Below, in pieces: positions 1 through 34,694 of a stretch of 34,694 nucleotides of DNA. The stretch is taken from the NCBI RefSeq assembly GCF_000003605.2, contig NW_003131564.1:1-34694 (forward strand). The letters run 5' to 3'. Every line of letters starts with the position of its first letter. Position 1 is the stretch's first letter. Made by a program: the position numbers and the translations under genes. The notes under the pieces were generated by a model. That model saw nothing but the letters and a program-made list of their open reading frames with translations. It was not told where the DNA came from and made no database searches. The DNA is from Saccoglossus kowalevskii. Lineage: Eukaryota; Hemichordata; Enteropneusta; Harrimaniidae.

Positions 1-80
1 TTGGTATGCAATGTTTGTTACCACATACAAATGAAGACGCCTTGGTATGCAAATTTGTTACCACATACAATGAAGACACG
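1..80. repeat. Module C fragment at the left edge of the window
   Basis: The first unit (1-41) has the GCAATGTTTG core and GACGCC end seen in complete C modules, plus one extra A in its ACAAATGAAG segment. Unit 42-80 is a 39-bp GCAAATTTG form. The window therefore opens inside the array, not at its border. Confidence 0.8.
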
Positions 81-160
81 TTGGTATGCAAAGTTCGTTA
101 ACACATACAACACAAACACCTTGGTATGCAAATTTCGTTACCACATACAATAAAGACACC

Positions 161-1002
161 TTGGTATGCAAAGTCCTTTACCAGATGCAATACAGACACC
201 TTGGTACGCAAAGTTCGTTACCACATACAATAAAGACACCTTGGTATGCAAAGTCCGTTACCCCATGCAATACAGAAACCTTGGTATGCAAAGTTCGTTG
301 TTACCACATACAATACAGACACATTGGTATGCAAGGTCCGTTACCAAATGCAATACAGACACCTTGGTATGCAAAGTTCGTTACCACATACAATACAGAC
401 ATCTTGGTATGCAAAGTTCGTTACCACATACAATATAGACTCCTTGGTATGTAATGTTCGTTACCACATACAATACAGACACCTTGGTATGCAAAGTTCG
501 TTACCGCATACAATGAAGACACCTTGGTATGCAAACTTGTTACCACATACAATACAGATACCTTGGTATGCAAAGTTCGTTACCACATACAATAAAGACA
601 CCTTGGTATACAAAGTTCGTTACCACATCCAATACAGACACCTTGGTATGCAAAGTTCGTTATCGCATGCAACAAAGACACATTGGTATGCAAAGTTCGT
701 CACCACATACAATACATACACCTTGGTATGCAAAGTTCGTTAACGCATACAATAAAGACACATTGGTATGCAAAGTTCGTTACCACATACAATAAAAGAC
801 AACTTGGTATGCAATGTTCGGTACCACATACAATAAAGACACCTTGGTATGCAATGTTCGGTACCACATACAATACAGACACCTTGGTATGCAAGGTCCG
901 TTCCCACATACAATGAAGACACCTTGGTATGCAAGGTTCGTTACCACATACAATGAAGACACCTTGGTACGCAAATTTGTTACCACATACAATACAGACA
1001 CC
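161..1002. repeat. A+B 21-mer higher-order repeat, copy 1 (842 bp)
   Basis: A spans 161-682 and starts with the GTCCTTTACCAGATG unit, then GGTACGC, GTTACCCCATG...GAAACC, the 43-bp unit at 281-323, CCAAATG, TATAGACTCC, TGTAATG, CAATGAAG, a 39-bp AACTTG unit ending GATACC, GGTATAC...CCATCC and a TATCGCATGC unit. B spans 683-1002, with TTCGTCACC, TTAACGC, two TTCGGTACC units, two CAATGAAG units and a closing 39-bp GGTACGCAAATTTG unit. It is one base longer than the other five copies because of an extra A near 794 (CAATAAAAGAC). Confidence 0.85.
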
Positions 1003-1400
1003 TTGGTATGCAAATTTGTTACCACATACAATACAGACACCTTGGTATGCAATGTTTGTTACCACATACAATACAGACACCTTGGTATGCAAATTTGTTA
1101 CCACATACAACACAGACACCTTGGTATGCAAAGTTTGTTACCACATACAATAAAGACACCTTGGTATGCAAAGTTCGTTACCACATACAATATAGACACC
1201 TTGGTTTGTAATGTTCGTTACCACATACAATACAAACACCTTGGTATGCAAAGTCCGTTACCACATGCAATACAGACACCTTGGTACCCAAAGTTCGTTA
1301 CCACATACAATAAAGACACCTTGGTATGCAAAGTTCGTTACCATATACAATACAGACACATTGGTATGCAAAGTTCGTTACCACATACAATACAGACACC
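964..1400. repeat. 39-bp-rich run followed by ordinary monomers
   Basis: Units 964-1002, 1003-1041 and 1082-1120 are 39 bp, with a 40-bp GCAATGTTTG unit at 1042-1081 between them, resembling module C. From 1121 the units are ordinary 40-mers, including TTTGTAATG near 1203 and an unusual GGTACCC unit at 1281 that recurs at 19,896. The block about 804-1215 is repeated at 16,829-17,240 (shift 16,025). Confidence 0.75.
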
Positions 1401-2082
1401 TTGGTATGCAAAGTCCTTTACCAGATGCAATACAGACACCTTGGTACGCAAAGTTCGTTACCACATACAATAAAGACACCTTGGTATGCAAGGTCCGTTA
1501 CCCCATGCAATACTGAAACCTTGGTATGCAAAGTTCGTTGTTACCACATACAATACAGACACATTGGTATGCAAGGTCCGTTACCAAATGCAATACAGAC
1601 ACCTTGGTATGCAAAGTTCGTTACCACATACAATACAGACACCTTGGTATGCAAAGTTCGTTACCACATACAATATAGACTCCTTGGTATGTAATGTTCG
1701 TTACCACATACAATACAGACACCTTGGTATGCAAAGTTCGTTACCACATACAATGAAGACACCTTGGTATGCAAACATGTTACCACATACAATACAGACA
1801 CCTTGGTATGCAAAGTTCGTTACCACATACAATAAAGACACCTTGGTATACAAAGTTCGTTACCACATCCAATACAGACACCTTGGTATGCAAAGTTCGT
1901 TACCGCATACAACAAAGACACATTGGTATGCAAAGTTCGTCACCACATACAATACATACACCTTGGTATGCAAAGTTCGTTAACGCATACAATAAAGACA
2001 CATTGGTATGCAAAGTTCGTTACCACATACAATAAAGACACCTTGGTATGCAATGTTCGGTACCACATACAATAAAGACACC
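1401..2082. repeat. A module, copy 2, with a shortened B
   Basis: A runs 1401-1922 with its 43-bp unit at 1521-1563. It lies exactly 1,240 bp (31 units) after copy 1 and follows it unit by unit to about 2080. The unit before the 43-mer has GGTCCG and ends TACTGAAACC, a private change shared only with the copy near 11,148-11,187. B is only four units (1923-2082) and then jumps to a TTTGTATGC unit at 2083. Confidence 0.8.
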
Positions 2083-2202
2083 TTTGTATGCAATGTTCGT
2101 TACCACATACAATACAGACACATTGGTATGCAAGGTCCGTTACCACATGCAATACAGACACCTTGGTATGCAAAGTTCGTTACCAATTACAATACAGACA
2201 CC

Positions 2203-2481
2203 ATGGTATGCAAAGTTCGTTACCACATACATTACAGACACCTTGGTATGCAAAGTGCGTTACCACATACAATACAAACACCTTGGTATGCAAAGTTCGT
2301 TACCATATACAATACAGACTCCTTGGTATGTAATGTTCGTTACCACATACAATACAGACACCTTGGTATGCTAAGTTCGTTACCACATACATTACAGACA
2401 CCTTGGTATGCAAAGTGCGTTACCACATACAATACAACACCTTGGTATGCAAAGTTCGTTACCATATACAATACAGACACC
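2203..2481. repeat. Module D run (160-bp tetramer HOR)
   Basis: Ordered units are CATTACAG, GTGCGTT, CATATAC, TGTAATG, TGCTAAG/CATTACAG, GTGCGTT and CATATAC. The two GTGCGTT units are 160 bp apart. The unit 2403-2441 is 39 bp because its second half reads CAATACAACACC. The first unit starts ATGG instead of TTGG. Confidence 0.8.
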
Positions 2482-3038
2482 TTGGTATGCAAAGTTCGTT
2501 ACCACATACAATACAGACACCTTGGTATGCAAAGTTCGTTACCTCATACAATGAAGACACCTTGGTATGCAAATTTGTTACCACATACAATACAGACACC
2601 TTGGTATACAAAGTTCGTTACCACATACAATAAAGACACCTTGGTATGCAAAGTTCGTTACCACATACAATACAGACACATTGGTATGCAAAGATCGTTA
2701 CCACATACAATAAAGACACCTTGGTATGCAATGTTCGTTACCACATACAATACAGACACCTTGGTATGCAATGTTCGTTACCACATACAATGAAGACACC
2801 TTGGTATGCAAATTTGTTACCACATACAATACAGACACCTTGGTATGCAATGTTCGTTACCACATACAATGAAGACACCTTGGTATGCAAACTTGTTACC
2901 ACATACAATACAGATACCTTGGTATGCAAAGTTCGTTACCACATACAATAAAGACACCTTGGTATACAAAGCTCGTTACCACATCCAATACAGACACCTT
3001 GGTATGCAAAGTTCGTTACCGCATACAACACAGACACA
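2482..3038. repeat. Mixed monomers ending in the tail of module A
   Basis: Ordinary 40-mers with CAATGAAG and 39-bp GCAAATTTG units, plus a GCAAAGATCG unit near 2690 whose change recurs near 27,820 and 28,855. The stretch 2880-3038 is the last four units of module A (39-bp AACTTG, CAATAAAG, GGTATAC with GCTCG, TTACCGC) and joins a full B module. Confidence 0.7.
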
Positions 3039-3357
3039 TTGGTATGTAAAGTTCGTCACCACATACAATACATACACCTTGGTATGCAAAGTTCGTTAAC
3101 GCATACAATAAAGACACATTGGTATGCAAAGTTCGTTACCACATACAATAAAGACACCTTGGTATGCAATGTTCGGTACCACATACAATAAAGACACCTT
3201 GGTATGCAATGTTCGGTACCACATACAATACAGACACCTTGGTATGCAAGGTCCGTTACCACATACAATGAAGACACCTTGGTATGCAAGGTTCGTTACC
3301 ACATACAATGAAGACACCTTGGTACGCAAATTTGTTACCACATACAATACAGACACC
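3039..3357. repeat. Module B, full 319 bp
   Basis: Eight units in standard order from TTCGTCACC to the 39-bp GGTACGCAAATTTG unit. The first unit has GGTATGTAAAG. Two TTCGGTACC units 40 bp apart supply GGTACC (KpnI) sites. It opens the longest ordered superunit of the window, B-E-F-D-A, 3039-4919. Confidence 0.82.
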
Positions 3358-3637
3358 TTGGTATGCAAAGTTCGTTACCACATACAATACAGACACCTTG
3401 GTATACAAAGTTCGTTACCACATACAATAAAGACACCTTGGTATGCAAAGTTCGTTACCACATACAATACATACACATTGGTATGCATAGTTCGTTACCA
3501 CATACAATAAAGACACGTTGGTATGCAAAGTTTGTTACCACATACAATACATACACATTGGTATGCAAAGTTTGTTACAACATACAATAAAGACACCTTG
3601 GTATGCAAAGTTCGTTACAACATACAATACAGACACA
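3358..3637. repeat. Module E, 280 bp
   Basis: Seven 40-bp units: consensus, GGTATAC, a CATACACA end, GCATAG, TTTG with CATACACA, TTTGTTACAAC and TTCGTTACAAC. The same order follows a B module at 7588, 13,029 and 34,474, and occurs again at 13,831. Confidence 0.82.
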
Positions 3638-3997
3638 TTGGTATGCAAGGTCCGTTACCACATGCAATACAGACACCTTGGTATGCAAAGTTCGTTACCA
3701 CATACAATACAGACACCTTGGTATGCAAAGTTCGTTACCACATACAATATAGACACCTTGCTATGCAAAGTCCGTTACCACATGCAATACAGACACCTTG
3801 GTACGCAAAGTCCGTTACCACATACAATAAAGACACCTTGGTATGCAAAGTCTGTTACCCCATGCAATACAGAAACCTTGGTATGCAAAGTTCGTTACCA
3901 CATGCAATACAGACACCTCGGTATGCAAAGTTCGTTACCACATACAATACAGACACCTTGGTATGCAAAGTCCGTTACCACATACAATACAGACACC
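3638..3997. repeat. Module F, 360 bp
   Basis: Nine units: GGTCCG/CATGC, consensus, CAATATAG, GCTATGC/TCCG, GGTACGC/TCCG, TCTGTTACCCC with GAAACC, TTCG/CATGC, TCGGTATGC and TCCG. It leads directly into a D run. The same nine-unit order occurs at 16,229-16,588. Confidence 0.8.
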
Positions 3998-4397
3998 TTG
4001 GTATGCAAAGTTCGTTAACACATACATTACAGACACCTTGGTATGCAAAGTGCGTTACCACATACAATACAAACACCTTGGTATGCAAAGTTCGTTACCA
4101 TATACAATACAGACACCTTGGTATGCAAAGTCCGTTACCAATTACAATACAGACACCTTGGTATGCAAAGTTCGTTACCAGATACATTACAGACACCTTG
4201 GTATGCAAAGTGCGTTACCACATACAATACAAACACCTTGGTATGCAAAGTTCGTTACCATATACAATACAGACTCCTTGGTATGTAATGTTCGTTACCA
4301 CATACAATACAGACACCTTGGTATGCTAAGTTCGTTACCACATACATTACAGACACCTTGGTATGCAAAGTGCGTTACCAAATACAATACAAACACC
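3998..4397. repeat. Module D run, 400 bp
   Basis: Ten 40-bp units with GTGCGTT near 4050, 4210 and 4370, an exact 160-bp spacing. The fourth position alternates between TCCG with CCAATTAC and TGTAATG forms. The block is repeated at 18,260-18,659 with a shift of 14,262 bp. Confidence 0.84.
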
Positions 4398-5039
4398 TTG
4401 GTATGCAAAGTCCTTTACCAGATGCAATACAGACACCTTGGTACGCAAAGTTCGTTACCACATACAATAAAGACACCTTGGTATGCAAAGTCCGTTACCC
4501 CATGAAATACAGAAACCTTGGTATGCAAAGTTCGTTGTTACCACATACAATACAGACACATTGGTATGCAAGGTCCGTTACCAAATGCAATACAGACACC
4601 TTGGTATGCAAAGTTCGTTACCACATACAATACAGACACCTTGGTATGCAAAGTTCGTTACCACATACAATATAGACTCCTTGGTATGTAATGTTCGTTA
4701 TCACATACAATACAGACACCTTGGTATGCAAAGTTCGTTACCTCATACAATGAAGACACCTTGGTATGCAAACTTGTTACCACATACAATACAGATACCT
4801 TGGTATGCAAAGTTCGTTACCACATACAATAAAGACACCTTGGTATACAAAGTTCGTTACCACATCCAATACAGACACCTTGGTATGCAAAGTTCGTTAC
4901 CGCATACAACACAGACACATTGGTATGCAAAGTTCGTCACCACATACAATACATACACCTTGGTATGCAAAGTTCGTAAACGCATACAATAAAGACACAT
5001 TGGTATGCAAAGTTCGTTACCACATACAATAAAGACACG
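4398..5039. repeat. A module, copy 3, with a three-unit B fragment
   Basis: A runs 4398-4919 with the 43-bp unit at 4518-4560. The CCCC unit reads CATGAAATAC, and the TGTAATG unit has TTATCAC. B (4920-5039) is cut after three units, one reading TTCGTAAACGC, and joins E-type units. Confidence 0.8.
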
Positions 5040-5677
5040 TTGGTATGCAAAGTTTGTTACCACATACAATACATACACATTGGTATGCAAAGTTTGTTAC
5101 AACATACAATAAAGACACCTTGGTATGCAAAGTTCGTTACAACATACAATACAGACACATTGGTATGCAAGGTCCGTTACCACATACAATGAAGACACCT
5201 TGGTATGCAAATTTGTTACCACATACAATACAGACACCTTGGTATGCAAAGTTCGTTACCTCATACAATGAAGACACCTTGGTATGCAAATTTGTTACCA
5301 CATACAATACAGACACCTTGGTATACAAAGTTCGTTACCACATACAATAAAGACACCTTGGTATGCAAAGTTCGTTACCACATACAATACAGACACATTG
5401 GTATGCAAAGTTCGTTACCACATACAATAAAGACACGTTGGTATGCAAAGTTCGTTACCACATACAACACAGACACCTTGGTATGCAAATTTCGTTACCA
5501 CATACAATAAAGACACCTTTGTATGCAATGTTCGTTACCACATACAATACAGACACATTGGTATGCAAGGTCCGTTACCACATGCAATACAGACACCTTG
5601 GTATGCAAAGTTCGTTACCACATACAATACAGACACCTTGGTATGCAATGTTCGTTACCACATACAATGAAGACACC
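5040..5677. repeat. E fragment and mixed 40-mers
   Basis: 5040-5159 holds the last three units of module E (TTTG/CATACACA, TTTGTTACAAC, TTCGTTACAAC). Then follow CAATGAAG and 39-bp units, an ACCTCAT unit and a segment (GCAAATTTCG, then TTTGTATGCAATG) that recurs near 15,350-15,500, 21,620-21,760 and 30,050-30,180. The 15.35-kb copy is shifted 9,911 bp and the 30-kb copy 24,606 bp. Confidence 0.7.
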
Positions 5678-5913
5678 TTGGTATGCAAATTTGTTACCAC
5701 ATACAATACAGACACCTTGGTATGCAAATTTGTTACCACATACAATACAGACACCTTGGTATGCAATGTTTATTACCACATACAATGAAGACACCTTGGT
5801 ATGCAAATTTGTTACCACATACAATACAGACACCTTGGTATGCAATGCTTGTTACCACATACAATACAGACACCTTGGTATGCAAATTTGTTACCACATA
5901 CAATATAGACACC
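5678..5913. repeat. Module C (beta order), 236 bp
   Basis: Six units of 39-39-40-39-40-39 bp. The 40-mers carry GCAATGTTTATT and GCAATGCTTG. Each 39-mer contains ATGCAAATTTG, so this module has four perfect ATGCAAAT octamers. Confidence 0.82.
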
Positions 5914-6350
5914 TTGGTATGTAATGTTCGTTACCACATACAATACAGACACCTTGGTATGCAAAGTTCGTTACCACATACAATACAGACACCTTGGTAT
6001 GCAATGTTTATTACCACATACAATGAAGACACCTTGGTATGCAATGTTTGTTACCACATACAATGAAGACGCCTTGGTATGCAAATTTGTTACCACATAC
6101 AATGAAGACACCTTGGTATGCAAATTTGTTACCACATACAATACAGACACCTTGGTATGCAATGTTTGTTACCACATACAATACAGACACCTTTGTATGC
6201 AAATTTGTTACCACATACAACACAGACACCTTGGTATGCAAAGTTTGTTACCACATACAATACAGACACCTTGGTATACAAAGTTCGTTACCACATACAA
6301 TAAAGACACCTTGGTATGCAAAGTTCGTTACCACATACAATATAGACACC
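5914..6350. repeat. Mixed C-like monomers
   Basis: A TGTAATG unit, a TTTATT unit, a GACGCC unit at 6034-6073, then 39-mers at 6074-6112, 6113-6151 and 6192-6230. The last begins TTTGTATGC. This resembles a C module whose preceding G module has been shortened. Confidence 0.68.
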
Positions 6351-6825
6351 TTGGTATGTAATGTTCGTTACCACATACAATACAGACACCTTGGATGCAA
6401 AGTTCGTTACCACATACAATACAGACACCTTGGTATGCAATGTTCGTTACCACATACAATACAGACACCTTGGTATGCAAAGTTCGTTACCACATACAAT
6501 ACAGACACCTTGGTATGCAAAGTTCGTTACCACATACGATATAGACACCTTGGTATGTAATGTTCGTTACCACATACAATACAGACACCTTGGTATGCAA
6601 ATTTGTTACCACATACAATACAGACACCTTGGTATGCAATGTTTGTTACCACATACAATGAAGACGCCTTGGTATGCAAATTTGTTACCACATACAATGA
6701 AGACACCTTGGTATGCAAATTTGTTACCACATACAATACAGACACCTTGGTATGCAATGTTTGTTACCACATACAATACAGACACCTTGGTATGCAAATT
6801 TGTTACCACATAAAACACAGACACC
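6351..6825. repeat. G+C 12-mer higher-order repeat, copy 1 (475 bp)
   Basis: G (6351-6589) contains TGTAATG, consensus, TGCAATGTTCG, consensus, the diagnostic CATACGATATAG unit and TGTAATG. C (6590-6825) is 39-40-39-39-40-39. It is one base short of the 476-bp norm because the second G unit reads TTGGATGC. The last C unit has CATAAAACACAG, shared with the copies near 17.7 and 26.4 kb. Confidence 0.82.
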
Positions 6826-7145
6826 TTGGTATGCAAAGTTTGTTACCACATGCAATACAGACACCTTGGTATACAAAGTTCGTTACCACATACAATAAAG
6901 ACACCCCTTGTATGCAAAGTTCGTTATCAATACAATATAGACACCTTGGTATGTAATGTTCGTTACCACATACAATACAGACACCTTGGTATGCAAAGTC
7001 CATTACCACATGCAATACAGACACCTTGGTACGCAAAGTTCGTTACCACATACAATAAAGACACCTTGGTATGCAAAGTTCGTTACCATATACAATACAG
7101 ACATATAGGTATGCAAAGTTCGTTACCACATTCAATACAGACACC
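6826..7145. repeat. Ordinary monomers with a shared deletion
   Basis: Eight units with no HOR module assigned. One begins CCCTTGTATGC (near 6905). The next reads GTTATCAATACAATATAG, one base short; the same deletion recurs near 17,798 and 26,548, while a length-intact TTATCACATAC form is near 31,568. A unit ending ACATATAGG marks the start of the 1,762-bp-shifted block. Confidence 0.7.
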
Positions 7146-7587
7146 TTGGTATGCAAAGTCCGTTACCACATGCAATACAGACACCTTGGTACGCAAAGTT
7201 CGTTACCACATACAATAAAGACACCTTGGTATGCAAAGTCCGTTACCCCATGCAATACAGAAACCTTGGTATGCAAAGTTCGTTGTTACCACATACAATA
7301 CAGACACATTGGTATGCAAGGTCCGTTACCACATGCAATACAGACACCTTGGTATGCAAAGTTCGTTACCACATACAATACAGACACCTTGGTATGCAAT
7401 GTTCGGTACCACATACAATAAAGACACCTTGGTATGCAATGTTCGGTACCACATACAATACAGACACCTTGGTATGCAAGGTCCGTTACCACATACAATG
7501 AAGACACCTTGGTATGCAAGGTTCGTTACCACATACAATGAAGACACCTTGGTACGCAAATTTGTTACCACATACAATACAGACACC
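7146..7587. repeat. Shortened A joined to shortened B, copy at 7.1 kb
   Basis: A is reduced to six units (7146-7388) with the 43-bp unit at 7266-7308. Its first unit is TCCGTTACCACATGC, not TCCTTTACCAGATGC. B is five units (7389-7587), starting at the first TTCGGTACC unit. The same junction is at 8908-9349, shifted 1,762 bp. Confidence 0.8.
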
Positions 7588-7867
7588 TTGGTATGCAAAG
7601 TTCGTTACCACATACAATACAGACACCTTGGTATACAAAGTTCGTTACCACATACAATAAAGACACCTTGGTATGCAAAGTTCGTTACCACATACAATAC
7701 ATACACATTGGTATGCATAGTTCGTTACCACATACAATAAAGACACGTTGGTATGCAAAGTTTGTTACCACATACAATACATACACATTGGTATGCAAAG
7801 TTTGTTACAACATACAATAAAGACACCTTGGCATGCAAAGTTCGTTACAACATACAATACAGACACA
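7588..7867. repeat. Module E, second copy
   Basis: Seven units in the order seen at 3358, again directly after a B module. One unit reads GGCATGC in place of GGTATGC. The following unit has GGTCCCG, one extra C. Confidence 0.8.
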
Positions 7868-10467: not shown

Positions 10468-11067
10468 TTGGTATGCAAAGTTCGTTACCGCATACATTAC
10501 AGACACCTTGGTATGCAAATTGCGTTACCATATACAATACAAACACCTTGGTATGCAAAGTTCGTTACCACATACAATACAGACACCTTGGTATGCAAAG
10601 TCCGTTACCACATACAATACAGACACCTTGGTATGCAAAGTTCGTTACCACATACATTACAGACACCTTGGTATGCAAAGTGCGTTACCACATACAATAC
10701 AAACACCTTGGTATGCAAAGTTCGTTACCATATACAATACAGACACCTTGGTATGCAAAGTCCGTTACCACATACAATACAGACACCTTGGTATGCAAAG
10801 TTCGTTACCACATACATTACAGACACCTTGGTATGCAAAGTGCGTTACCACATACAATACAAACACCTTGGTATGCAAAGTTCGTTACCATATACAATAC
10901 AGACACCTTGGTATGTAATGTTTGTTACCACATACAATACAGACACCTTGGTATGCTAAGTTCGTTACCACATACATTACAGACACCTTGGTATGCAAAG
11001 TGCGTTACCACATACAATACAAACCCCTTGGTATGCAAAGTTCGTTACCATATACAATACAGACACC
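10468..11067. repeat. Longest module D run, 600 bp
   Basis: Fifteen 40-bp units. The GTGCGTT-type units near 10,520 (as TTGCGTT), 10,680, 10,840 and 11,000 are spaced exactly 160 bp, giving almost four tetramers in a row. The middle two tetramers are identical by eye except for the fourth unit (TCCG versus TGTAATG). This points to recent local expansion of the tetramer. Confidence 0.84.
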
Positions 11068-11430
11068 TTGGTATGCAAAGTTCGTTACCACATACAATAC
11101 AGACACCTTGGTACGCAAAGTTCGTTACCACATACAATAAAGACACCTTGGTATGCAAGGTCCGTTACCCCATGCAATACTGAAACCTTGGTATGCAAAG
11201 TTCGTTGTTACCACATACAATACAGACACATTGGTATGCAAGGTCCGTTACCAAATGCAATACAGACACCTTGGTATGCAAAGTTCGTTACCACATACAA
11301 TACAGACACCTTGGTATGCAAAGTTCGTTACCACATACAATACAGACTCCTTGGTATGCAAAGTTCGTTACCACATACAATATAGGCTCCTTGGTATGCA
11401 AAGTTCGTTACCACATACAATAAAAACACC
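11068..11430. repeat. Partial A module, copy 6
   Basis: Units include GGTACGC at 11,108, GGTCCG/CCCC with TACTGAAACC, the 43-bp unit at 11,188-11,230 and CCAAATG at 11,231. A CAGACTCC unit and a TATAGGCTCC unit follow in place of TATAGACTCC/TGTAATG. The TACTGAAACC change links it to the copy at 1401. Confidence 0.75.
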
Positions 11431-11589: not shown

Positions 11590-11908
11590 TTGGTATGCAA
11601 AGTTCGTCACCACATACAATACATACACCTTGGTATGCAAAGTTCGTTAACGCATACAATAAAGACACATTGGTATGCAAAGTTCGTTACCACATACAAT
11701 AAAGACACCTTGGTATGCAATGTTCGGTACCACATACAATAAAGACACCTTGGTATGCAATGTTCGGTACCACATACAATACAGACACCTTGGTATGCAA
11801 GGTCCGTTACCACATACAATGAAGACACCTTGGTATGCAAGGTTCGTTACCACATACAATGAAGACACCTTGGTACGCAAATTTGTTACCACATACAATA
11901 CAGACACC
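11590..11908. repeat. Module B, full 319 bp
   Basis: Standard eight-unit order. It follows a shortened A tail (GGTATAC/CCATCC, TTACCGC) after the degenerate pair. Two TTCGGTACC units carry GGTACC sites. Confidence 0.8.
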
Positions 11909-13028: not shown

Positions 13029-13308
13029 TTGGTATGCAAAGTTCGTTACCACATACAATACAGACACCTTGGTATACAAAGTTCGTTACCACATACAATA
13101 AAGACATCTTGGTATGCAAAGTTCGTTACCACATACAATACATACACATTGGTATGCATAGTTCGTTACCACATACAATAAAGACACGTTGGTATGCAAA
13201 GTTTGTTACCACATACAATACATACACATTGGTATGCAAAGTTTGTTACAACATACAATAAAAACACCTTGGTATGCAAAGTTCGTTACAACATACAATA
13301 CAGACACA
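13029..13308. repeat. Module E, third copy
   Basis: Directly follows B. One unit ends GACATC and another has CAATAAAAACACC; both changes are reproduced 802 bp downstream, marking the tandem duplication. Confidence 0.8.
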
Positions 13309-14640
13309 TTGGTATGCAAGGTCCGTTACCACATGCAATACAGACACCTTGGTATGCAAAGTCCTTTACCAGATGCAATACAGACACCTTGGTACGCAAA
13401 GTTCGTTACCACATACAATAAAGACACCTTGGTATGCAAAGTCCGTTACCCCATGCAATACAGAAACCTTGGTATGCAAAGTTCGTTGTTACCACATACA
13501 ATACAGACACATTGGTATGCAAGGTCCGTTACCAAATGCAATACAGACACCTTGGTATGCAAAGTTCGTTACCACATACAATACAGACACCTTGGTATGC
13601 AAAGTTCGTTACCACATACAATATAGACTCCTTGGTATGTAATGTTCGTTACCACATACAATACAGACACCTTGGTATGCAAAGTTCGTTACCACATACA
13701 ATGAAGACACCTTGGTATGCAAACTTGTTACCACATACAATACAGATACCTTGGTATGCAAAGTTCGTTACCACATACAATAAAGACACCTTGGTATACA
13801 AAGTTCGTTACCACATCCAATACAGACACCTTGGTATACAAAGTTCGTTACCACATACAATACAGACACCTTGGTATACAAAGTTCGTTACCACATACAA
13901 TAAAGACATCTTGGTATGCAAAGTTCGTTACCACATACAATACATACACATTGGTATGCATAGTTCGTTACCACATACAATAAAGACACGTTGGTATGCA
14001 AAGTTTGTTACCACATACAATACATACACATTGGTATGCAAAGTTTGTTACAACATACAATAAAAACACCTTGGTATGCAAAGTTCGTTACAACATACAA
14101 TACAGACACATTGGTATGCAAGGTCCGTTACCACATGCAATACAGACACCTTGGTATGCAAAGTCCTTTACCAGATGCAATACAGACACCTTGGTACGCA
14201 AAGTTCATTACCACATACAATAAAGACACCTTGGTATGCAAAGTCCGTTACCCCATGCAATACAGAAACCTTGGTATGCAAAGTTCGTTGTTACCACATA
14301 CAATACAGACACATTGGTATGCAAGGTCCGTTACCAAATGCAATACAGACACCTTGGTATGCAAAGTTCGTTACCACATACAATACAGACACCTTGGTAT
14401 GCAAAGTTCGTTACCACATACAATATAGACTCCTTGGTATGTAATGTTCGTTACCACATACAATACAGACACCTTGGTATGCAAAGTTCGTTACCACATA
14501 CAATGAAGACACCTTGGTATGCAAACTTGTTACCACATACAATACAGATACCTTGGTATGCAAAGTTCGTTACCACATACAATAAAGACACCTTGGTATA
14601 CAAAGTTCGTTACCACATCCAATACAGACACCTTGGTATG
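13037..14640. repeat. 802-bp head-to-tail tandem duplication (E plus A, two copies)
   Basis: About 13,037-13,838 and 13,839-14,640 match unit by unit: E (13,029 and 13,831), one GGTCCG/CATGC unit, then A (13,349 and 14,151) with 43-bp units at 13,469-13,511 and 14,271-14,313. The clearest difference I saw is TTCGTT to TTCATT near 14,206. The joint replaces the TTACCGC end of A by a GGTATAC unit of E. The length equals 20 units plus 3 minus 1, as expected from the embedded 43-mer and 39-mer. Confidence 0.85.
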
Positions 14641-19258: not shown

Positions 19259-19695
19259 TTGGTATGTAATGTTCGTTACCACATACAATACAGACACCTT
19301 GGTATGCAAAGTTCGTTACCACATACAATACAGACACCTTGGTATGCAATGTTCGTTACCACATACAATACAGACACCTTGGTATGCAAAGTTCGTTACC
19401 ACATACAATACAGACACCATGGTATGCAAAGTTCGTTACCACATACGATATAGACACCTTGGTATGTAATGTTCGTTACCACATACAATACAGACACCTT
19501 GGTATGCAATGTTTGTTACCACATACAATGAAGACGCCTTGGTATGCAAATTTGTTACCACATACAATGAAGACACCTTGGTATGCAAATTTGTTACCAC
19601 ATACAATACAGACACCTTGGTATGCAATGTTTGTTACCACATACAATACAGACACCTTGGTATGCAAATTTGTTACCACATACAACACAGACACC
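19259..19695. repeat. G+C higher-order repeat, truncated copy (437 bp)
   Basis: G (19,259-19,498) is complete with CATACGATATAG; one unit starts ATGG near 19,418. C lacks its first 39-mer and begins with the GCAATGTTTG/GACGCC 40-mer at 19,499, so the repeat is 39 bp short of 476. Confidence 0.8.
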
Positions 19696-20013
19696 TTGGT
19701 ATGCAAAGTTTGTTACCACATGCAATACAGACACCTTGGTATACAAAGTTCGTTACCACATACAATAAAGACACCATGGTATGCAAAGTTCGTTACCACA
19801 TACAATATAGACACCTTGGTATGTAATGTTCGTTACCACATACAATACAGACACCTTGGTATGCAAAGTCCGTTACCACATGCAATACAGACACCTTGGT
19901 ACCCAAAGTTCGTTACCACATACATAAAGACACCTTGGTATGCAAAGTTCGTTACCATATACATACAGACACATAGGTATGCAAAGTTCGTTACCACATA
20001 CAATACAGACACC
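19696..20013. repeat. Ordinary monomers with two single-A losses
   Basis: Contains TTTG/CATGC, GGTATAC, TGTAATG and GGTACCC (19,896) units. Two neighbouring units lose one A each (CATACATAAAG near 19,921 and TATACATACAG near 19,957). The last units match the lead-in to other A modules, with the ATAGG start. Confidence 0.68.
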
Positions 20014-20854
20014 TTGGTATGCAAAGTCCTTTACCAGATGCAATACAGACACCTTGGTACACAAAGTTCGTTACCACATACAATAAAGACACCTTGGTAT
20101 GCAAAGTCTGTTACCCCATGCAATACAGAAACTTTGGTATGCAAAGTTCGTTGTTACCACATACAATACAGACACATTGGTATGCAAGGTCCGTTACCAA
20201 ATGCAATACAGACACCTTGGTATGCAAAGTTCGTTACCACATACAATACAGACACCTTGGTATGCAAAGTTCGTTACCACATACAATATAGACTCCTTGG
20301 TATGTAATGTTCGTTACCACATACAATACAGACACCTTGGTATGCAAAGTTCGTTACCACATACAATGAAGACACCTTGGTATGCAAACTTGTTACCACA
20401 TACAATACAGATACCTTGGTATGCAAAGTTCGTTACCACATACAATAAAGACACCTTGGTATACAAAGTTCGATACCACATCCAATACAGACACCTTGGT
20501 ATGCAAAGTTCGTTACCGCATACAACAAAGACACATTGGTATGCAAAGTTCGTCACCACATACAATACATACACCTTGGTATGCAAAGTTCGTTAACGCA
20601 TACAATAAAGACACATTGGTATGCAAAGTTCGTTACCACATACAATAAAGACACCTTGGTATGCAATGTTCGGTACCACATACAATAAAGACACCTTGGT
20701 ATGCAATGTTCGGTACCACATACAATACAGACACCTTGGTATGCAAGGTCCGTTACCACATACAATGAAGACACCTTGGTATGCAAGGTTCGTTACCACA
20801 TACAATGAAGACACCTTGGTACGCAAATTTGTTACCACATACAATACAGACACC
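20014..20854. repeat. A+B 21-mer higher-order repeat, copy 3 (841 bp)
   Basis: A 20,014-20,535 and B 20,536-20,854, with the 43-bp unit at 20,134-20,176. Private changes include GGTACACAAAG, TCTGTTACCCC, GAAACTTTGG just before the 43-mer, and TTCGATACC near 20,470. Total length is exactly that of the other copies. Confidence 0.86.
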
Positions 20855-21257
20855 TTGGTATGCAAAGTTCGTTACCACATACAATACAGACACCTTGGTA
20901 TACAAAGTTCGTTACCACATACAATAAAGACACCTTGGTATGCAAAGTTCGTTACCACATACAATACAGTCACATATGGTATGCAAAGTTCGTTACCACA
21001 TACAATAAAGACACGTTGGTATGCAAAGTTTCGTTACCACATACAACACAGACACCTTGGTATGCAAATTTCGTTACCACATACAATAAAGACACCTTTG
21101 TATGCAAATGTTCGTTACCACATACAATACAGACACATTGGTATGCAAGGTCCGTTACCACATGCAATACAGACACCTTGGTATGCAAAGTTCGTTACCA
21201 CATACAATACAGACACCTTGGTATGCAATGTTCGTTACCACATACAATGAAGACACC
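20855..21257. repeat. Ordinary monomers with three single-base insertions
   Basis: The order follows 5318-5677 (GGTATAC, CAATAAAG, CAACACAG, GCAAATTTCG, TTTGTATGC). It has an extra base in CAGTCACATATGG, an extra T in AAGTTTCG and an extra A in GCAAATGTTCG between about 20,969 and 21,112. Confidence 0.68.
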
Positions 21258-27968: not shown

Positions 27969-28204
27969 TTGGTATGCAAATTTGTTACCACATACAATAC
28001 AGACACCTTGGTATGCAATGTTCGTTACCACATACAATGAAGACACCTTGGTATGCAAATTTGTTACCACATACAATACAGACACCTTGGTTTGCAAATT
28101 TGTTACCACATACAATACAGACACCTTGGTATGCAATGTTTATTACCACATACAATGAAGACACCTTGGTATGCAAATTTGTTACCACATACAATACAGA
28201 CACC
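27969..28204. repeat. Module C, variant order, 236 bp
   Basis: 39-40-39-39-40-39, where the first 40-mer is a GCAATGTTCG/CAATGAAG unit and the last has TTTATT. One 39-mer starts TTGGTTTGC, so its octamer is lost. Confidence 0.76.
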
Positions 28205-28244
28205 TTGGTATGCAAAGTTCGTTACCACATACAATACAGTCACC

Positions 28245-28684
28245 TTGGTATGCAAAGTTCGTTAACACATACATTACAGACACCTTGGTATGCAAAGTGC
28301 GTTACCACATACAATACAAACACCTTGGTATGCAAAGTTCGTTACCATATACAATACAGACACCTTGGTATGCAAAGTCCGTTACCAATTACAATACAGA
28401 CACCTTGGTATGCAAAGTTCGTTACCACATACATTACAGACACCTTGGTATGCAAAGTGCGTTACCACATACAATACAAACACCTTGGTATGCAAAGTTC
28501 GTTACCATATACAATACAGACTCCTTGGTATGTAATGTTCGTTACCACATACAATACAGACACCTTGGTATGCTAAGTTCGTTACCACATACATTACATA
28601 CACCTTGGTATGCAAAGTGCGTTACCACATACAATACAAACACCTTGGTATGCAAAGTTCGTTACCATATACAATACAGACACC
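28245..28684. repeat. Module D run, 440 bp
   Basis: Eleven units repeating 27,170-27,609. The private differences I saw are CATTACATACACC near 28,593 and the CAGTCACC end just before the run. Confidence 0.82.
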
Positions 28685-29362
28685 TTGGTATGCAAAGTTC
28701 GTTACCACATACAATACAGACACCTTGGTATGCAAAGTTCGTTACCTCATACAATGAAGACACCTTGGTATGCAAATTTGTTACCACATACAATACAGAC
28801 ACCTTGGTATACAAAGTTCGTTACCACATACAATAAAGACACCTTGGTATGCAAAGATCGTTACCACATACAATAAAGACACGTTGGTATGCAAAGTTCG
28901 TTAACACATACAACACAAACACCTTGGTATGCAAATTTCGTTACCACATACAATAAAGACACCTTGGTATGCAATGTTCGTTACCACATACAATACAGAC
29001 ACATTGGTATGCAAGGTCCATTACCACATGCAATACAGACACCTTTGGTTATGCAAAGTTCGTTACCACATACAATACAGACACCTTGGTATGCAATGTT
29101 CGTTACCACATACAATGAAGACACCTTGGTATGCAAATTTGTTACCACATACAATACAGACACCTTGGTATGCAAATTTGTTACCACATACAATACAGAC
29201 ACCTTGGTATGCAAACTTGTTACCACATACAATACAGACACCTTGGTATGCAAAGTTCGTTACCACATACAATAAAGACACCTTGGTATACAAAGTTCGT
29301 TACAACATCCAATACAGACACCTTGGTATGCAAAGTTCGTTACCGCATACAACAAAGACACA
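28685..29362. repeat. Ordinary monomers, 39-mer triplet and A tail
   Basis: Starts like 27,610 on. The unit near 28,895 (TTAACACATACAACACAAAC) matches 81-120. An insertion (CTTTGGTTATGC) lies near 29,043. Three consecutive 39-mers occupy 29,126-29,242, the last an AACTTG form. The A tail (GGTATAC with TTACAACATCC, TTACCGC) follows. Confidence 0.7.
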
Positions 29363-29522
29363 TTGGTATGCAAAGTTCGTCACCACATACAATACATACA
29401 CCTTGGTATGCAAAGTTCGTTAACGCATACAATAAAGACACATTGGTATGCAAAGTTCGTTACCACATACAATAAAGACACCTTGGTATGCAATGTTCGG
29501 TACCACATACAATAAAGACACC
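29363..29522. repeat. Four-unit B fragment
   Basis: TTCGTCACC, TTAACGC, CAATAAAG and TTCGGTACC units. It is followed by the TTTGTATGC unit at 29,523, as at three other sites. Confidence 0.76.
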
Positions 29523-29642
29523 TTTGTATGCAATGTTCGTTACCACATACAATACAGACACATTGGTATGCAAGGTCCGTTACCACATGCAATACAGACA
29601 CCTTGGTATGCAAAGTTCGTTACCAATTACAATACAGACACC

Positions 29643-29801
29643 TTGGTATGCAAAGTTCGTTACCACATACATTACAGACACCTTGGTATGCAAAGTGCGT
29701 TACCACATACAATACAAACACCTTGGTATGCAAAGTTCGTTACCACATACAATACAACACCTTGGTATGCAAAGTTCGTTACCATATACAATACAGACAC
29801 C
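29643..29801. repeat. Short module D
   Basis: CATTACAG, GTGCGTT, a 39-bp unit ending CAATACAACACC and CATATAC. The CAACACC deletion is shared with the D run at 2203 but sits on a different unit. Confidence 0.72.
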
Positions 29802-30283
29802 TTGGTATGCAAAGTTCGTTACCACATACAATACAGACACCTTGGTATGCAAAGTTCGTTACCTCATACAATGAAGACACCTTGGTATGCAATTTTGTTA
29901 CCACATACAATACAAGACACTTTGGTATACAAAGTTCGTTACCACATACAATAAAGACACCTTGGTATGCAAAGTTTCGTTACCACATACAATACAGACA
30001 CATTGGTATGCAAAAGTTCGTTACCACATACAATAAAGACACGTTGGTATGCAAAGTTCGTTACCACATACAACACAGACACCTTGGTATGCAAATTTCG
30101 TTACCACATACAATAAAGACACCTTTGTATGCAATGTTCGTTACCACATACAATACAGACACATTGGTATGCAAGGTCCGTTACCACATGCAATACAGAC
30201 ACCTTGGTATGCAAAGTTCGTTACCACATACAATACAGACACCTTGGTATGCAATGTTCGTTACCACATACAATGAAGACACC
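29802..30283. repeat. Ordinary monomers with four length changes
   Basis: Follows the order of 5240-5677 with extra bases in CAAGACACTTTGG (about 29,912), AAAGTTTCG (29,975) and GCAAAAGTTCG (30,012), and a GCAATTTTG 39-mer near 29,890. TTTGTATGC and GGTCCG/CATGC units follow. Confidence 0.68.
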
Positions 30284-30519
30284 TTGGTATGCAAATTTGT
30301 TACCACATACAATACAGACACCTTGGTATGCAAATTTGTTACCACATACAATACAGACACCTTGGTATGCAATGTTTATTACCACATACAATGAAGACAC
30401 CTTGGTATGCAAATTTGTTACCACATACAATACAGACACCTTGGTATGCAATGCTTGTTACCACATACAATACAGACACCTTGGTATGCAAATTTGTTAC
30501 CACATACAATATGGACACC
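30284..30519. repeat. Module C (beta order), 236 bp
   Basis: 39-39-40-39-40-39 with TTTATT and GCTTG units. The last 39-mer has CAATATGGACACC. Directly joined to module G. Confidence 0.8.
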
Positions 30520-31432
30520 TTGGTATGTAATGTTCGTTACCACATACAATACAGACACCTTGGTATGCAAAGTTCGTTACCACATACAATACAGACACCT
30601 TGGTATGCAATGTTCGTTACCACATACAATACAGACACCTTGGTATGCAAAGTTCGTTACCACATACAATACAGACACCTTGGTATGCAAAGTTCGTTAC
30701 CACATACGATATAGACACCTTGGTATGTAATGTTCGTTACCACATACAATACAGACACCTTGGTATGCAAATTTGTTACCACATACAATACAGACACCTT
30801 GGTATGCAATGTTTGTTACCACATACAATGAAGACGCCTTGGTATGCAAATTTGTTACCACATACAATGAAGACACCTTGGTATGCAGATTTGTTACCAC
30901 ATACAATACAGACACCTTGGTATGCAATGTTTGTTACCACATACAATACAGACACCTTGGTATGCAAATTTGTTACCACATACAATATAGACACCTTGGT
31001 ATGTAATGTTCGTTACCACATACAATACAGACACCTTGGTATGCAAAGTTCGTTACCACATACAATACAGACACCTTGGTATGCAATGTTCGTTACCACA
31101 TACAATACAGACACCTTGGTATGCAAAGTTCGTTACCACATACAATACAGACACCTTGGTATGCAAAGTTCGTTACCACATACGATATAGACACCTTGGT
31201 ATGTAATGTTCGTTACCACATACAATACAGACACCTTGGTATGCAAATTTGTTACCACATACAATACAGACACCTTGGTATGCAATGTTTGTTACCACAT
31301 ACAATGAAGACGCCTTGGTATGCAAATTTGTTACCACATACAATGAAGACACCTTGGTATGCAAATTTGTTACCACATACAATACAGACCCCTTGGTATG
31401 CAATGTTTGTTACCACATACAATACAGACACC
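30481..31432. repeat. 476-bp head-to-tail tandem duplication (G+C)
   Basis: 30,481-30,956 and 30,957-31,432 match throughout. G+C units are 30,520-30,995 and 30,996-31,471. I saw three differences: ATGGAC versus ATAGAC, GCAGATTTG (near 30,887) versus GCAAATTTG, and GACACC versus GACCCC (near 31,389). The length equals twelve units with four 39-mers. Confidence 0.86.
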
Positions 31433-31471
31433 TTGGTATGCAAATTTGTTACCACATACAACACAGACACC

Positions 31472-31791
31472 TTGGTATGCAAAGTTTGTTACCACATGCA
31501 ATACAGACACCTTGGTATACAAAGTTCGTTACCACATACAATAAAGACATCTTGGTATGCAAAGTTCGTTATCACATACAATATAGACACCTTGGTATGT
31601 AATGTTCGTTACCACATACAATACAGACACCTTGGTATGCAAAGTCCGTTACCACATGCAATACAGACACCTTGGTACGCAAAGTTCGTTACCACATACA
31701 ATAAAGACACCTTGGTATGCAAAGTTCGTTACCATATACAATACAGACACATAGGTATGCAAAGTTCGTTACCACATACAATACAGACACC
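31472..31791. repeat. Ordinary monomers before an A module
   Basis: TTTG/CATGC, GGTATAC ending GACATC, TTATCACATAC/CAATATAG (length-intact form of the 26,548 deletion), TGTAATG, TCCG, GGTACGC, CATATAC and ATAGG units. Confidence 0.7.
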
Positions 31792-32632
31792 TTGGTCTGA
31801 AAAGTCCTTTACCAGATGCAATACAGACACCTTGGTACGCAAAGTTCGTTACCACATACAATAAAGACACCTTGGTATGCAAAGTCCGTTACCCCATGCA
31901 ATACAGAAACCTTGGTATGCAAAGTTCGTTGTTACCACATACAATACAGACACATTGGTATGCAAGGTCCGTTACCAAATGCAATACAGACACCTTGGTA
32001 TGCAAAGTTCGTTACCACATACAATACAGACACCTTGGTATGCAAAGTTCGTTACCACATACAATATAGACTCCTTGGTATGTAATGTTCGTTACCACAT
32101 ACAATACAGACACCTTGGTATGCAAAGTTCGTTACCACATACAATGAAGACACCTTGGTATGCAAACTTGTTACCACATACAATACAGACACCTTGGTAT
32201 GCAAAGTTCGTTACCACATACAATAAAGACACCTTGGTATGCAAAGTTCGTTACCACATCCAATACAGACACCTTGGTATGCAAAGTTCGTTACCGCATA
32301 CAACAAAGACACATTGGTATGCAAAGTTCGTCACCACATACAATACATACACCTTGGTATGCAAAGTTCGTTAACGCATACAATAAAGACACATTGGTAT
32401 GCAAAGTTCGTTACCACATACAATAAAGACAACTTGGTATGTAATGTTCGGTACCACATACAATAAAGACACCTTGGTATGCAATGTTCGGTACCACATA
32501 CAATACAGACACCTTGGTATGCAAGGTCCGTTACCACATACAATGAAGACACCTTGGTATGCAAGGTTCGTTACCACATACAATGAAGACACCTTGGTAC
32601 GCAAATGTGTTACCACATACAATACAGACACC
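31792..32632. repeat. A+B 21-mer higher-order repeat, copy 6 (841 bp)
   Basis: A 31,792-32,313 and B 32,314-32,632, with the 43-bp unit at 31,912-31,954. The first unit starts GGTCTGAAAAG. The unit after the AACTTG 39-mer has lost the usual GATACC and GGTATAC changes. In B, GACAAC, GGTATGTAATGTTCGG and a final GGTACGCAAATGTG are private or rare. Confidence 0.86.
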
Positions 32633-33154
32633 TTGGTATGCAAAGTTCGTTACCACATACAATACAGACACCTTGGTATACAAAGTTCGTTACCACATAC
32701 AATAAAGTCACCTTGGTATGCAAAGTTCGTTACCACATACAATACAGACACATTGGTATGCAAAGTTCGTTACCACATACAATAAAGACACGTTGGTATG
32801 CAAAGTTCGTTACCACATACAATACAGACACATTGGTATGCAAAGTTTGTTACAACATACAATAAAGATACCTTGGTATGCAAAGTTCGTTACAACATAC
32901 AATACAGACACCTTGGTATGCAAAGTTCGTTACCACATCCAATACAGACACCTTGGTATGCAAAGTTCGTTGTTACCGCATACAATACAGACACATTGGT
33001 ATGCAAACTTGTTACCACATACAATACATACACCTTGGTATGCAAAGTTCGTTACCACATACAATAAAGACACCTTGGTATACAAAGTTCGTTACAACAT
33101 CCAATACAGACACCTTGGTATGCAAAGTTCGTTACCGCATACAACAAAGACACA
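32633..33154. repeat. Mosaic stretch with an out-of-context 43-mer
   Basis: CAATAAAGTCACC, E-type TTACAAC units (32,833-32,912) and a CCATCC unit, then a 43-bp unit at 32,953-32,995 flanked by units unlike those of module A and reading TTGTTACCGC. A 39-mer with CATACACC and the A tail (GGTATAC with TTACAACATCC) follow. The displaced 43-mer suggests gene conversion or unequal exchange. Confidence 0.72.
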
Positions 33155-33474
33155 TTGGTATGCAAAGTTCGTCACCACATACAATACATACACCTTGGTA
33201 TGCAAAGTTCGTTAACGCATACAATAAAGACACATTGGTATGCAAAGTTCGTTACCACATACAATAAAGACACCTTGGTATGCAATGTTCGGTACCACAT
33301 ACAATAAAGACACCTTTGTATGCAATGTTCGTTACCACATACAATACAGACACATTGGTATGCAAGGTCCGTTACCACATGCAATACAGACACCTTGGTA
33401 TGCAAAGTTCGTTACCAATTACAATACAGACACCTTGGTATGCAAAGTTCGTTACCACATACATTACAGACACC
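33155..33474. repeat. Four-unit B fragment, TTTGTATGC joint and one D unit
   Basis: B units 33,155-33,314 jump to TTTGTATGC at 33,315, then GGTCCG/CATGC and CCAATTAC. A single CATTACAG unit (33,435-33,474) follows and switches to a GCTTG unit of module C. Confidence 0.74.
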
Positions 33475-33872
33475 TTGGTATGCAATGCTTGTTACCACAT
33501 ACAATACAGACACCTTGGTATGCAAATTTGTTACCACATACAATATAGACACCTTGGTATGTAATGTTCGTTACCACATACAATACAGACACTTTGGTAT
33601 GCAAGGTCCGTTACCACATACAATGAAGACACCTTGGTATGCAAGGTTCGTTACCACATACAATGAAGACACCTTGGTACGCAAAGTTCGTTACCACATA
33701 CAATACAGACACCTTGGTATGCAAAGTTCGTTACCACATACAATACAGACACCTTGGTATACAAAGTTCGTTACCACATACAATACAGACACCTTGGTAT
33801 GCAAAGTTCGTTACCACATACAATGAAGACACCTTGGTATGCAAACTTGTTACCACATACAATACAGATACC
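33475..33872. repeat. Ordinary monomers
   Basis: GCTTG, 39-mer with CAATATAG, TGTAATG, GGTCCG/CAATGAAG, GGTTCG/CAATGAAG, a GGTACGCAAAGTTCG unit, consensus units and the 39-bp AACTTG/GATACC unit at 33,834. The order is that of C end, B end and A tail joined together. Confidence 0.68.
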
Positions 33873-34473
33873 TTGGTACGCAAAGTTCGTTACCACATAC
33901 AATAAAGACACCTTGGTATGCAAAGTCCGTTACCCCATGCAATACAGAAACCTTGGTATGCAAAGTTCGTTGTTACCACAAACAATACAGACACATTGGT
34001 ATGCAAGGTCCGTTACCAAATGCAATACAGACACCTTGGTATGCAAAGTTCGTTACCACATACAATACAGACACCTTGGTATGCAAAGTTCGTTACCACA
34101 TACAATATAGACTCCTTGGTATGTAATGTTCGTTACCACATACAATACAGACACCTTGGTATGCAAAGTTCGTTACCACATACAATGAAGACACCTTGGT
34201 ATGCAAACTTGTTACCACATACAATACAGATACCTTGGTATGCAAAGTTCGTTACCACATACAATAAAGACACCTTGGTATACAAAGTTCGGTACCACAT
34301 ACAATAAAGACACCTTGGTATGCAATGTTCGGTACCACATACAATACAGACACCTTGGTATGCAAGGTCCGTTACCACATACAATGAAGACACCTTGGTA
34401 TGCAAGGTTCGTTACCACATACAATGAAGACACCTTGGTACGCAAATTTGTTACCACATACAATACAGACACC
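33873..34473. repeat. Shortened A joined to shortened B near the right end
   Basis: A starts at GGTACGC (33,873) and carries the 43-bp unit at 33,953-33,995 with CCACAAACAAT, as in the copy at 12,308. It runs through TATAGACTCC, TGTAATG, CAATGAAG and AACTTG, then jumps to B through a hybrid GGTATACAAAGTTCGGTACC unit near 34,279. B ends with the 39-mer at 34,435-34,473. Confidence 0.78.
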
Positions 34474-34694
34474 TTGGTATGCAAAGTTCGTTACCACATA
34501 CAATACAGACACCTTGGTATACAAAGTTCGTTACCACATACAATAAAGACACCTTGGTATGCAAAGTTCGTTACCACATACAATACATACACATTGGTAT
34601 GCATAGTTCGTTACCACATACAATAAAGACACGTTGGTATGCAAAGTTTGTTACCACATACAATACATACACATTGGTATGCAAAGTTTGTTGA
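34474..34694. repeat. Module E cut by the window end
   Basis: Five E units and the first 21 bases of the sixth, again directly after a B end unit. The final two bases are GA where the module would have AC. That may be a change, the edge of the array or the edge of the assembly. Confidence 0.75.

What the first reader, a model, noticed from the sequence alone, without database searches (positions are those of the whole stretch)
1..34694. Unfamiliar 40-bp satellite with several nested levels of higher-order repeat
One 40-bp unit fills 34.7 kb, yet its variants fall into fixed-order modules: 160 bp (D), 236 and 240 bp (C, G), 280 bp (E), 319 bp (B), 360 bp (F), 476 bp (G+C) and 841 bp (A+B). Regular higher-order structure in satellites is known from homogenised arrays such as primate alpha satellite. 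Seeing several distinct HORs of one short monomer interleaved in 35 kb is unusual. I do not recognise the monomer.
Basis: partly seen in the sequence, partly recalled or inferred. Interest (0 to 1): 0.7.

Follow-up and report, generated by a model that had tools for sequence, protein, structure and literature searches.

The report
Acorn-worm 40-bp minisatellite with shuffled blocks
This stretch is one very long run of a 40-letter DNA repeat, most likely from a marine acorn worm, in which blocks of repeat variants recur at all distances instead of forming the regular nested repeats first proposed; it is an ordinary kind of repeat with an unusually well-mixed layout.

Summary
The window is a whole 34,694-bp contig made of 869 head-to-tail pieces of one 40-bp unit (201 variants, mean 94% identity to consensus). 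The recurring fixed-order modules are real: 88% of monomers lie in a duplicated block, against no blocks in three shuffles. The "nested higher-order repeats" are mostly not: no lag dominates and only three short tandem HOR segments were found. Blocks (median 11.5 monomers, about 460 bp) recur at similar density from lag 10 to 868 monomers and equally between contigs. The mitochondrial contig points to an acorn worm, most likely Saccoglossus kowalevskii. In the readable genome the unit sits on three contigs, 45.7 kb. One contig holds an array edge beside LRR exons; that edge shares no block with the interior. Six of 15 readable contig starts that I sampled are filled by long arrays of other 26-66-bp units, with a mosaic of varying degree. 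Simulations disfavour short local tandem duplication; they do not separate large-segment unequal exchange from conversion-like copying. New member of a known kind; modest interest.

The parts
1..34694 (+). uninterrupted array of 869 pieces of the 40-bp unit TTGGTATGCAAAGTTCGTTACCACATACAATACAGACACC; both contig ends lie inside the array
   Evidence: the window is the whole contig G000:C2328 as far as shown
10548..11068 (+). local tandem HOR, 160 bp (4 monomers), about 3.25 copies, 89% of monomer pairs within one difference
13029..14633 (+). local tandem HOR, 802 bp (20 monomers), 2 copies
6986..7698 (+). longest exact duplicated block: 17 monomers at lag 1762 bp (713-bp exact run); partner starts at about 8748; ends approximate
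3159..3397 (+). 239-bp, 6-monomer module; further copies start at 7389, 9151, 9749, 11710, 12830, 20656, 23413 (8 in all); neighbours shared by some copies and different in others
3079..3397 (+). 319-bp, 8-monomer module (contains the 239-bp one); further copies start at 11630, 12750, 20576
19499..21019 (+). longest approximate duplicated block (38 monomers, score 23); partner starts at 31275; end approximate

Best explanation
A non-coding, very long minisatellite array (45.7 kb on three contigs, probably one locus) in an acorn worm (most likely Saccoglossus kowalevskii), with one edge beside tandem LRR exons. Point variants arise in single monomers; blocks of monomers are then copied within the array by out-of-register exchange between sister or homologous arrays, or by conversion-like repair, with donor and acceptor up to tens of kilobases apart. 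The interior thus becomes a well-mixed mosaic while the array edge is left out. SHOWN: the array, the variants, the blocks, the flat distance profile, a divergent edge, the three-contig distribution in the readable genome. INFERRED: the exchange mechanism, that the three contigs are one locus, the absence of a function, and the exact species.
For: Density of shared blocks is the same within the window (44.5 per 1e5 monomer pairs), between the window and contig C75 (43.8) and within C75 (44.3), and shows no trend from lag 10 to 868 monomers. Adjacent monomers are identical less often than chance (0.7% at lag 1 against 1.8%), which speaks against recent slippage. The 18 edge pieces on C485 share no block with the window or C75; 4 of 95 interior pieces of the same size also share none, so this alone is modest; 9 of 17 whole edge monomers are absent from window and C75, while interior pieces of 18 have on average 2.2 and at most 6 monomers absent from the rest of the window. 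The exact 30-mer occurs 205 times in the readable genome: 163 in the window, 37 on C75, 5 on C485; a 34-mer with up to 3 mismatches 828 times: 635, 176 and 17. 91 of 108 singleton monomers are one change from a repeated type. Simulations. Species: Pfam names ten mitochondrial proteins in an order with ND5-CYTB adjacent, ND6 on the minus strand after CYTB, and ND2 before ND1; COX1 is inverted. This fits the description of S. kowalevskii (PMC3121625, passages). ATA codons in COX1 align to Ile at 5 of 9 aligned sites (2 Val, 1 Leu, 1 Met; read by hand).
Against: No simulated model fits easily: after filters on diversity, flatness and block length 4 of 1188 conversion, 2 of 1059 exchange and 0 of 1087 tandem runs were left. 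Ranked by overall distance instead, the ten closest runs were 3 exchange, 3 tandem (the closest of which had segments of 58-94 monomers), 2 conversion and 2 mixed, so large tandem duplications are not excluded. Exchange with shifts above 200 monomers is flat but tends to leave exact runs of about 100 monomers, while the window's longest is 17. Five of 20 sampled contig starts read wholly as N and four partly, so copies of the unit could lie in withheld stretches. The far end of the array was not found, and the search for an allelic flank did not complete. C75 could be the other allele.
Confidence: 0.7

Rival explanations
1. A centromeric or pericentromeric satellite with several nested HORs, as in primate alpha satellite.
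For: Three short tandem HOR segments exist and recurring modules are far above chance.
Against: No HOR period dominates. Only three contigs carry the unit in the readable genome. One array edge abuts LRR exons. By reading, the consensus has no CGGG and so no canonical CENP-B box (motif recalled; variants in the window were not scanned).
Confidence: 0.08
2. Replication slippage or short local tandem duplication and deletion alone made the blocks.
For: A few adjacent duplications exist. Three of the nine stretches tested (L009, L026, L028) have more near than far block pairs. 11 of 85 matched runs with mean segment under 40 monomers reach a near/far ratio of 1.5 or less, and 17 of 42 with 40-100 monomers.
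Against: The window's near/far ratio is 1.35; simulated tandem duplication with mean size under 40 monomers gives medians of 6-17, and 0 of 1087 tandem runs passed the filters on block length. Neighbouring monomers are less alike than chance in the window.
Confidence: 0.15
3. The mosaic is an assembly artefact from stitching reads inside an array.
For: The contig is unplaced and lies wholly in the array. C75 starts and ends with irregular, indel-bearing monomers, as low-coverage contig ends do.
Against: C75, only 10.25 kb and so possibly a single long read (inference), shows the same block density. Blocks of about 460 bp are much shorter than long-read overlaps. Other arrays show a similar layout to varying degree.
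Confidence: 0.1
4. A coding repeat, translated into a repetitive protein.
For: Mechanical + strand ORFs reach 356 aa.
Against: The unit is 40 bp (not a multiple of 3), so the frame rotates each copy; 39- and 43-bp variants are common; the 181 ORFs of 80 aa or more overlap each other along the whole window.
Confidence: 0.02

Closest known systems
Hypervariable minisatellites with interspersed variant repeats (recalled, e.g. human MVR-typed loci)
   Same: 10-100-bp unit, head-to-tail, one locus as far as seen, interspersed point variants, divergent edge
   Different: Longer than typical loci (45.7 kb assembled against usually a few kb, recalled); block copies are evenly mixed over about 35 kb
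Dispersed HOR blocks in the Arabidopsis CEN178 centromere satellite (recalled; the paper asked for was not held)
   Same: Short blocks of consecutive variants recur at many distances and do not form regular tandem HORs
   Different: Unit 40 bp against 178 bp; no evidence of a centromere; seen on three contigs only
Primate alpha-satellite HORs
   Same: Variant order above the monomer level; local HOR segments of 160, 476 and 802 bp
   Different: No dominant HOR period; monomers about 90% identical to each other against about 70% within alpha HORs (PMC8122249, passages)
Amphioxus minisatellite-like 'mirage' repeats in globin and Adh genes (PMC3087553, passages)
   Same: Minisatellite-like repeats in a marine deuterostome; array boundaries excluded from homogenisation
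   Different: Mirages are duplicated exon-intron boundaries, 3 and 6 units in the two BflGb6 haplotypes; here about 1,140 copies, none seen to include an exon

Membership tests
Minisatellite (VNTR) array | head-to-tail unit of about 10-100 bp | tested here: met
   40-bp unit, 868.5 copies
Minisatellite (VNTR) array | confined to one or few loci | tested here: met
   three contigs, all + strand, account for 205 of 205 and 828 of 828 matches; withheld stretches could not be searched
Minisatellite (VNTR) array | length polymorphism between alleles | tested here: inconclusive
   C75 shares blocks with the window, the longest 33 monomers, but whether it is an allele is unknown; the allelic flank search did not complete
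HOR satellite (alpha-satellite type) | a dominant multi-monomer period with near-identical adjacent copies over long stretches | tested here: not met
   best lag 7.0% exact; three segments of 2-3.25 copies
HOR satellite (alpha-satellite type) | centromeric location or CENP-A binding | not testable with these tools
   no chromosome map or ChIP data
Dispersed-block mosaic satellite (CEN178-like; features recalled) | recurrence of runs of 3 or more variant monomers at many distances | tested here: met
   168 blocks with no trend from lag 10 to 868 monomers; 3-monomer words likewise
Repeat protein gene | one open frame through the array | tested here: not met
   longest mechanical ORF 356 aa in 34.7 kb

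The most novel reading that the evidence does not exclude
In this acorn worm, long minisatellites of unrelated sequence are homogenised mainly by distance-independent copying of blocks of roughly 0.2-2 kb within each array (conversion-like or break-induced), so arrays of tens of kilobases stay well mixed without forming regular HORs; the genome would then be a natural set of replicate arrays for measuring such copying.
Probability: 0.25. Interest if true: 0.5.

Novelty: new member of a known kind. Interest (0 to 1): 0.3.

Why it matters
It corrects a tempting reading (nested HORs) to a well-mixed mosaic, and shows that the pattern is not special to this window but appears to varying degree in several unrelated minisatellites of one genome. 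Such arrays could test whether homogenisation of tandem repeats is local (slippage) or long-range (unequal exchange, conversion), because many independent arrays with countable variants seem to sit in one genome.

Tried and rejected
Exact 22-mer of the unit in viral contigs and genome contigs: 0 matches each (relatives of the own genome may be left out there). Rfam on the window: 0 families at the gathering threshold. Hairpin potential of the dimer on either strand: not above shuffles, z 0.60 and 0.67. Relatedness of the unit to those of 7 other arrays: no pair with the window unit at p 0.05 or below; 4 of 28 pairs, all among the other arrays, reached it, uncorrected. First guesses of bird, amphioxus and mollusc were set aside after the mitochondrial order and code were read; molluscs were not tested.

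Papers. Listings: '40 bp satellite' + higher-order repeat 0 papers; hemichordate + genome assembly + minisatellite 2; hemichordate mitochondrial order 4; amphioxus + minisatellite 5; Asymmetron + genome assembly + PacBio 2; Saccoglossus kowalevskii + mitochondrial genome + cox1 + inversion 4; Saccoglossus kowalevskii + genome assembly + tandem repeat 13; CENP-B box 6, 5 listed; Saccoglossus + satellite DNA 4; HOR mechanisms 41, 15 listed. From titles and abstract starts alone none describes such repeats in acorn worms, which does not show that none is in print. Passages only were seen of PMC2697986, PMC2034537, PMC3121625, PMC3087553 and PMC8122249. One Arabidopsis centromere paper was not held.

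Simulation design. An exploratory set; 1047 runs kept of 2400 planned (read out); 3334 kept of 6000 planned. Runs were cut off by time, which favours quick settings, and runs whose array fell below 869 monomers were dropped uncounted. Variants were infinite alleles. The exchange and tandem models both duplicate or delete adjacent segments and differ only in the size law of the segment. The limits were set by me around the observed values.
Full report
What is there. The window is contig C2328 (1-34694) of a 572-Mb, 4830-contig assembly. It is one tandem array from end to end: TRF gives a 40-bp period, 868.5 copies, 89% matches. A wrap-around alignment to the + strand consensus splits it into 869 pieces: 724 of 40 bp, 114 of 39 bp, 18 of 43 bp, 11 of 41 bp, one of 42 bp and a 21-bp end piece. 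There are 201 distinct monomers, mean identity to consensus 94.1%. Of the 201 types, 108 are singletons, 91 of them one change from a repeated type.

Is the order random? No. Repeated words of four monomers number 133, against a mean of 0.035 in 200 shuffles. With one difference per monomer allowed, 168 duplicated blocks reach a score of 7 or more, against 0 in each of 3 shuffles; 87.8% of monomers lie in at least one block; the median block is 11.5 monomers and the longest 38. At base level, 87.6% of the window lies in a 120-bp exact word that occurs at least twice, and 70.6% in such a 236-bp word.

Is it a set of nested HORs? Mostly no. For lags of 1-399 monomers the share of identical monomer pairs is at most 7.0%, chance being 1.8%. 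A segment counts as a tandem HOR only if the aligned run is at least one period long. For periods of 1-119 monomers three segments qualify: 160 bp x3.25, 802 bp x2 and 476 bp x2. These hold 184, 374 and 176 bases in exact runs of 120 or more, one run each, so the test is not failed outright; lags 236, 240, 280, 319 and 360 hold none. Among lags of 30-19,999 bp the strongest are 14262, 8747 and 9220 bp, then 802. The eight copies of the 239-bp module share some neighbours and differ in others.

Distance profile. Block density is 23-83 per 1e5 monomer pairs in every lag bin from 10 to 868 monomers, without a trend; there are no blocks at lags of 1-9. Three-monomer words behave alike: 0 at lags 1-3, 1.2 per 1000 at 4-10, and 1.8-3.8 in all further bins to 860. 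Neighbouring monomers are identical in 0.7% of pairs, below the 1.8% of chance. Contig C75 (10,251 bp) is wholly the same array. Of its first 10,000 bases, 226 of 252 monomers occur in the window; it shares blocks with the window at 43.8 per 1e5, against 44.5 within the window and 44.3 within C75. The blocks are thus as well mixed between contigs as within them.

Place in the genome. The exact 30-mer occurs 205 times in the readable genome and a 34-mer with up to 3 mismatches 828 times; C2328, C75 and C485 account for all: 163 + 37 + 5 and 635 + 176 + 17. All lie on the + strand of their contigs (0 reverse). On C485 the array begins at about 9611 and runs to the contig end. To its left lie LRR exons on the - strand (four ORFs given to Pfam, all with LRR matches; ORFs) and a 2.7-kb array of a 44-bp unit. 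The 18 edge pieces, of which the first was cut one base short by my script and the last is cut by the contig end, share no block with the window or C75; 4 of 95 interior pieces of 18 monomers also share none, so this alone is modest. With the first monomer read whole, 9 of 17 whole edge monomers are absent from the window and C75, whereas interior pieces of 18 have a mean of 2.2 and at most 6 absent from the rest of the window. Divergent edges are expected where homogenisation is by recombination; exclusion of boundary copies is reported for amphioxus minisatellite-like repeats (PMC3087553, passages).

Organism. Contig C4830 (17,037 bp) is a mitochondrial genome: rRNA and tRNA by Rfam and ARAGORN, ten proteins by Pfam (ATP6, COX3, ND3, ND4L, ND4, ND5, CYTB, ND6 on the minus strand, ND2, ND1), COX1 on the minus strand by match to solved structures; COX2 was named by reading only. 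ND5 and CYTB are adjacent, ND6 follows CYTB, ND2 precedes ND1, COX1 is inverted. Passages of PMC3121625 derive the S. kowalevskii order from that of Balanoglossus by inversion of COX1 and transposition of ND1 or ND2; passages of PMC2697986 give ND5-CYTB adjacency and ATA = Ile in hemichordates. In COX1, 9 of 10 ATA codons fall in the alignment to 7o37_a: 5 opposite Ile, 2 Val, 1 Leu, 1 Met (read by hand). I conclude an acorn worm, most likely S. kowalevskii; a relative with the same order is not excluded.

Is the window special? It does not seem so. Of 20 contig starts fetched (numbers picked by me, two of them neighbours of the window, mostly short contigs, so not a random sample), 5 read wholly and 4 partly as N. 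Of the 15 readable, 6 are filled by arrays of units of 26, 30, 44, 44, 47 and 66 bp and 2 by tandem units that hold tRNA genes. I tested nine stretches: these six arrays, the array at the left end of C485 (read in its 22-bp half unit), C75 and the window. All nine have blocks, with none in shuffles at the threshold used, and block coverage from 0.44 to 0.88; some rest on few blocks (3 in L026, 6 in L009 and in L015). In six of nine near pairs are no more frequent than far pairs; in three (L009, L026, L028) they are. L028 has several short tandem HORs. So the mosaic is shared in kind, but not equally flat.

Mechanism. Forward simulations with local tandem duplication and deletion, unequal exchange with a maximum shift, copying of blocks from any place to any place, and a mixture were compared. 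By overall distance no model wins: of the ten closest runs 3 were exchange, 3 tandem, 2 copying, 2 mixed. Among runs matched in diversity and coverage, a near/far ratio of 1.5 or less (observed 1.35) was reached by 11 of 85 tandem runs with mean segment under 40 monomers and 17 of 42 with 40-100; by 17 of 57 exchange runs with maximum shift under 200 and 44 of 46 above; and by 97 of 103 copying runs. Exchange above 200 tends to leave longer exact runs (median maximum about 100) than the 17 observed, and copying of blocks under 40 monomers leaves too few long runs. In a second set 29 tandem, 38 exchange and 29 copying runs matched diversity and flatness; after adding block lengths 0 of 1087, 2 of 1059 and 4 of 1188 were left, and after adding the number of shared runs 0, 1 and 1. 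The data thus disfavour short local duplication alone and leave exchange of large segments and conversion-like copying open; no simple model fits well.

Verdict. The observation of recurring modules is right; the interpretation as several nested HORs is mostly wrong. It is a long minisatellite, probably one locus, of an acorn worm, with a well-mixed internal mosaic, in a genome where other long minisatellites are easy to find. No function is indicated.

Noticed in passing
L015, L020, L021, L023, L026, L028 (starts of contigs C200, C2327, C2329, C3000, C4500, C4828): Long arrays of 26-66-bp units fill the 10 kb fetched from each of these contigs: the genome seems rich in very long minisatellites.
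   Followed up: partly
L022 (C2500:1-10000): 39 tandem tRNA genes on the minus strand, 38 of them labelled His, with anticodons GTG and ATG mixed, in units of about 225-265 bp.
   Followed up: no
L027 (C4826:1-7500): 13 tandem tRNA-Trp genes, many spaced about 467 bp.
   Followed up: no
L009 (C485:3298-9574, - strand): A series of LRR exons between a 44-bp array and the 40-bp array; several open frames begin alike, as if the exons were themselves tandemly duplicated.
   Followed up: partly
L030:1-671 (C4830): A 141-bp tandem repeat with 4.8 copies, 99% matches, next to ATP6 in the mitochondrial contig.
   Followed up: no
window, 17 places: 17 of the 18 monomers of 43 bp carry a GTT duplication (TTCGTTGTTACC); one of these types starts a 163-bp module in 7 copies, so it is a handy marker for tracing block copies.
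   Followed up: no
window 1-34694: Adjacent monomers are identical less often than chance (lag 1: 0.7% against 1.8%), and no 3-monomer word recurs at lags 1-3.
   Followed up: no
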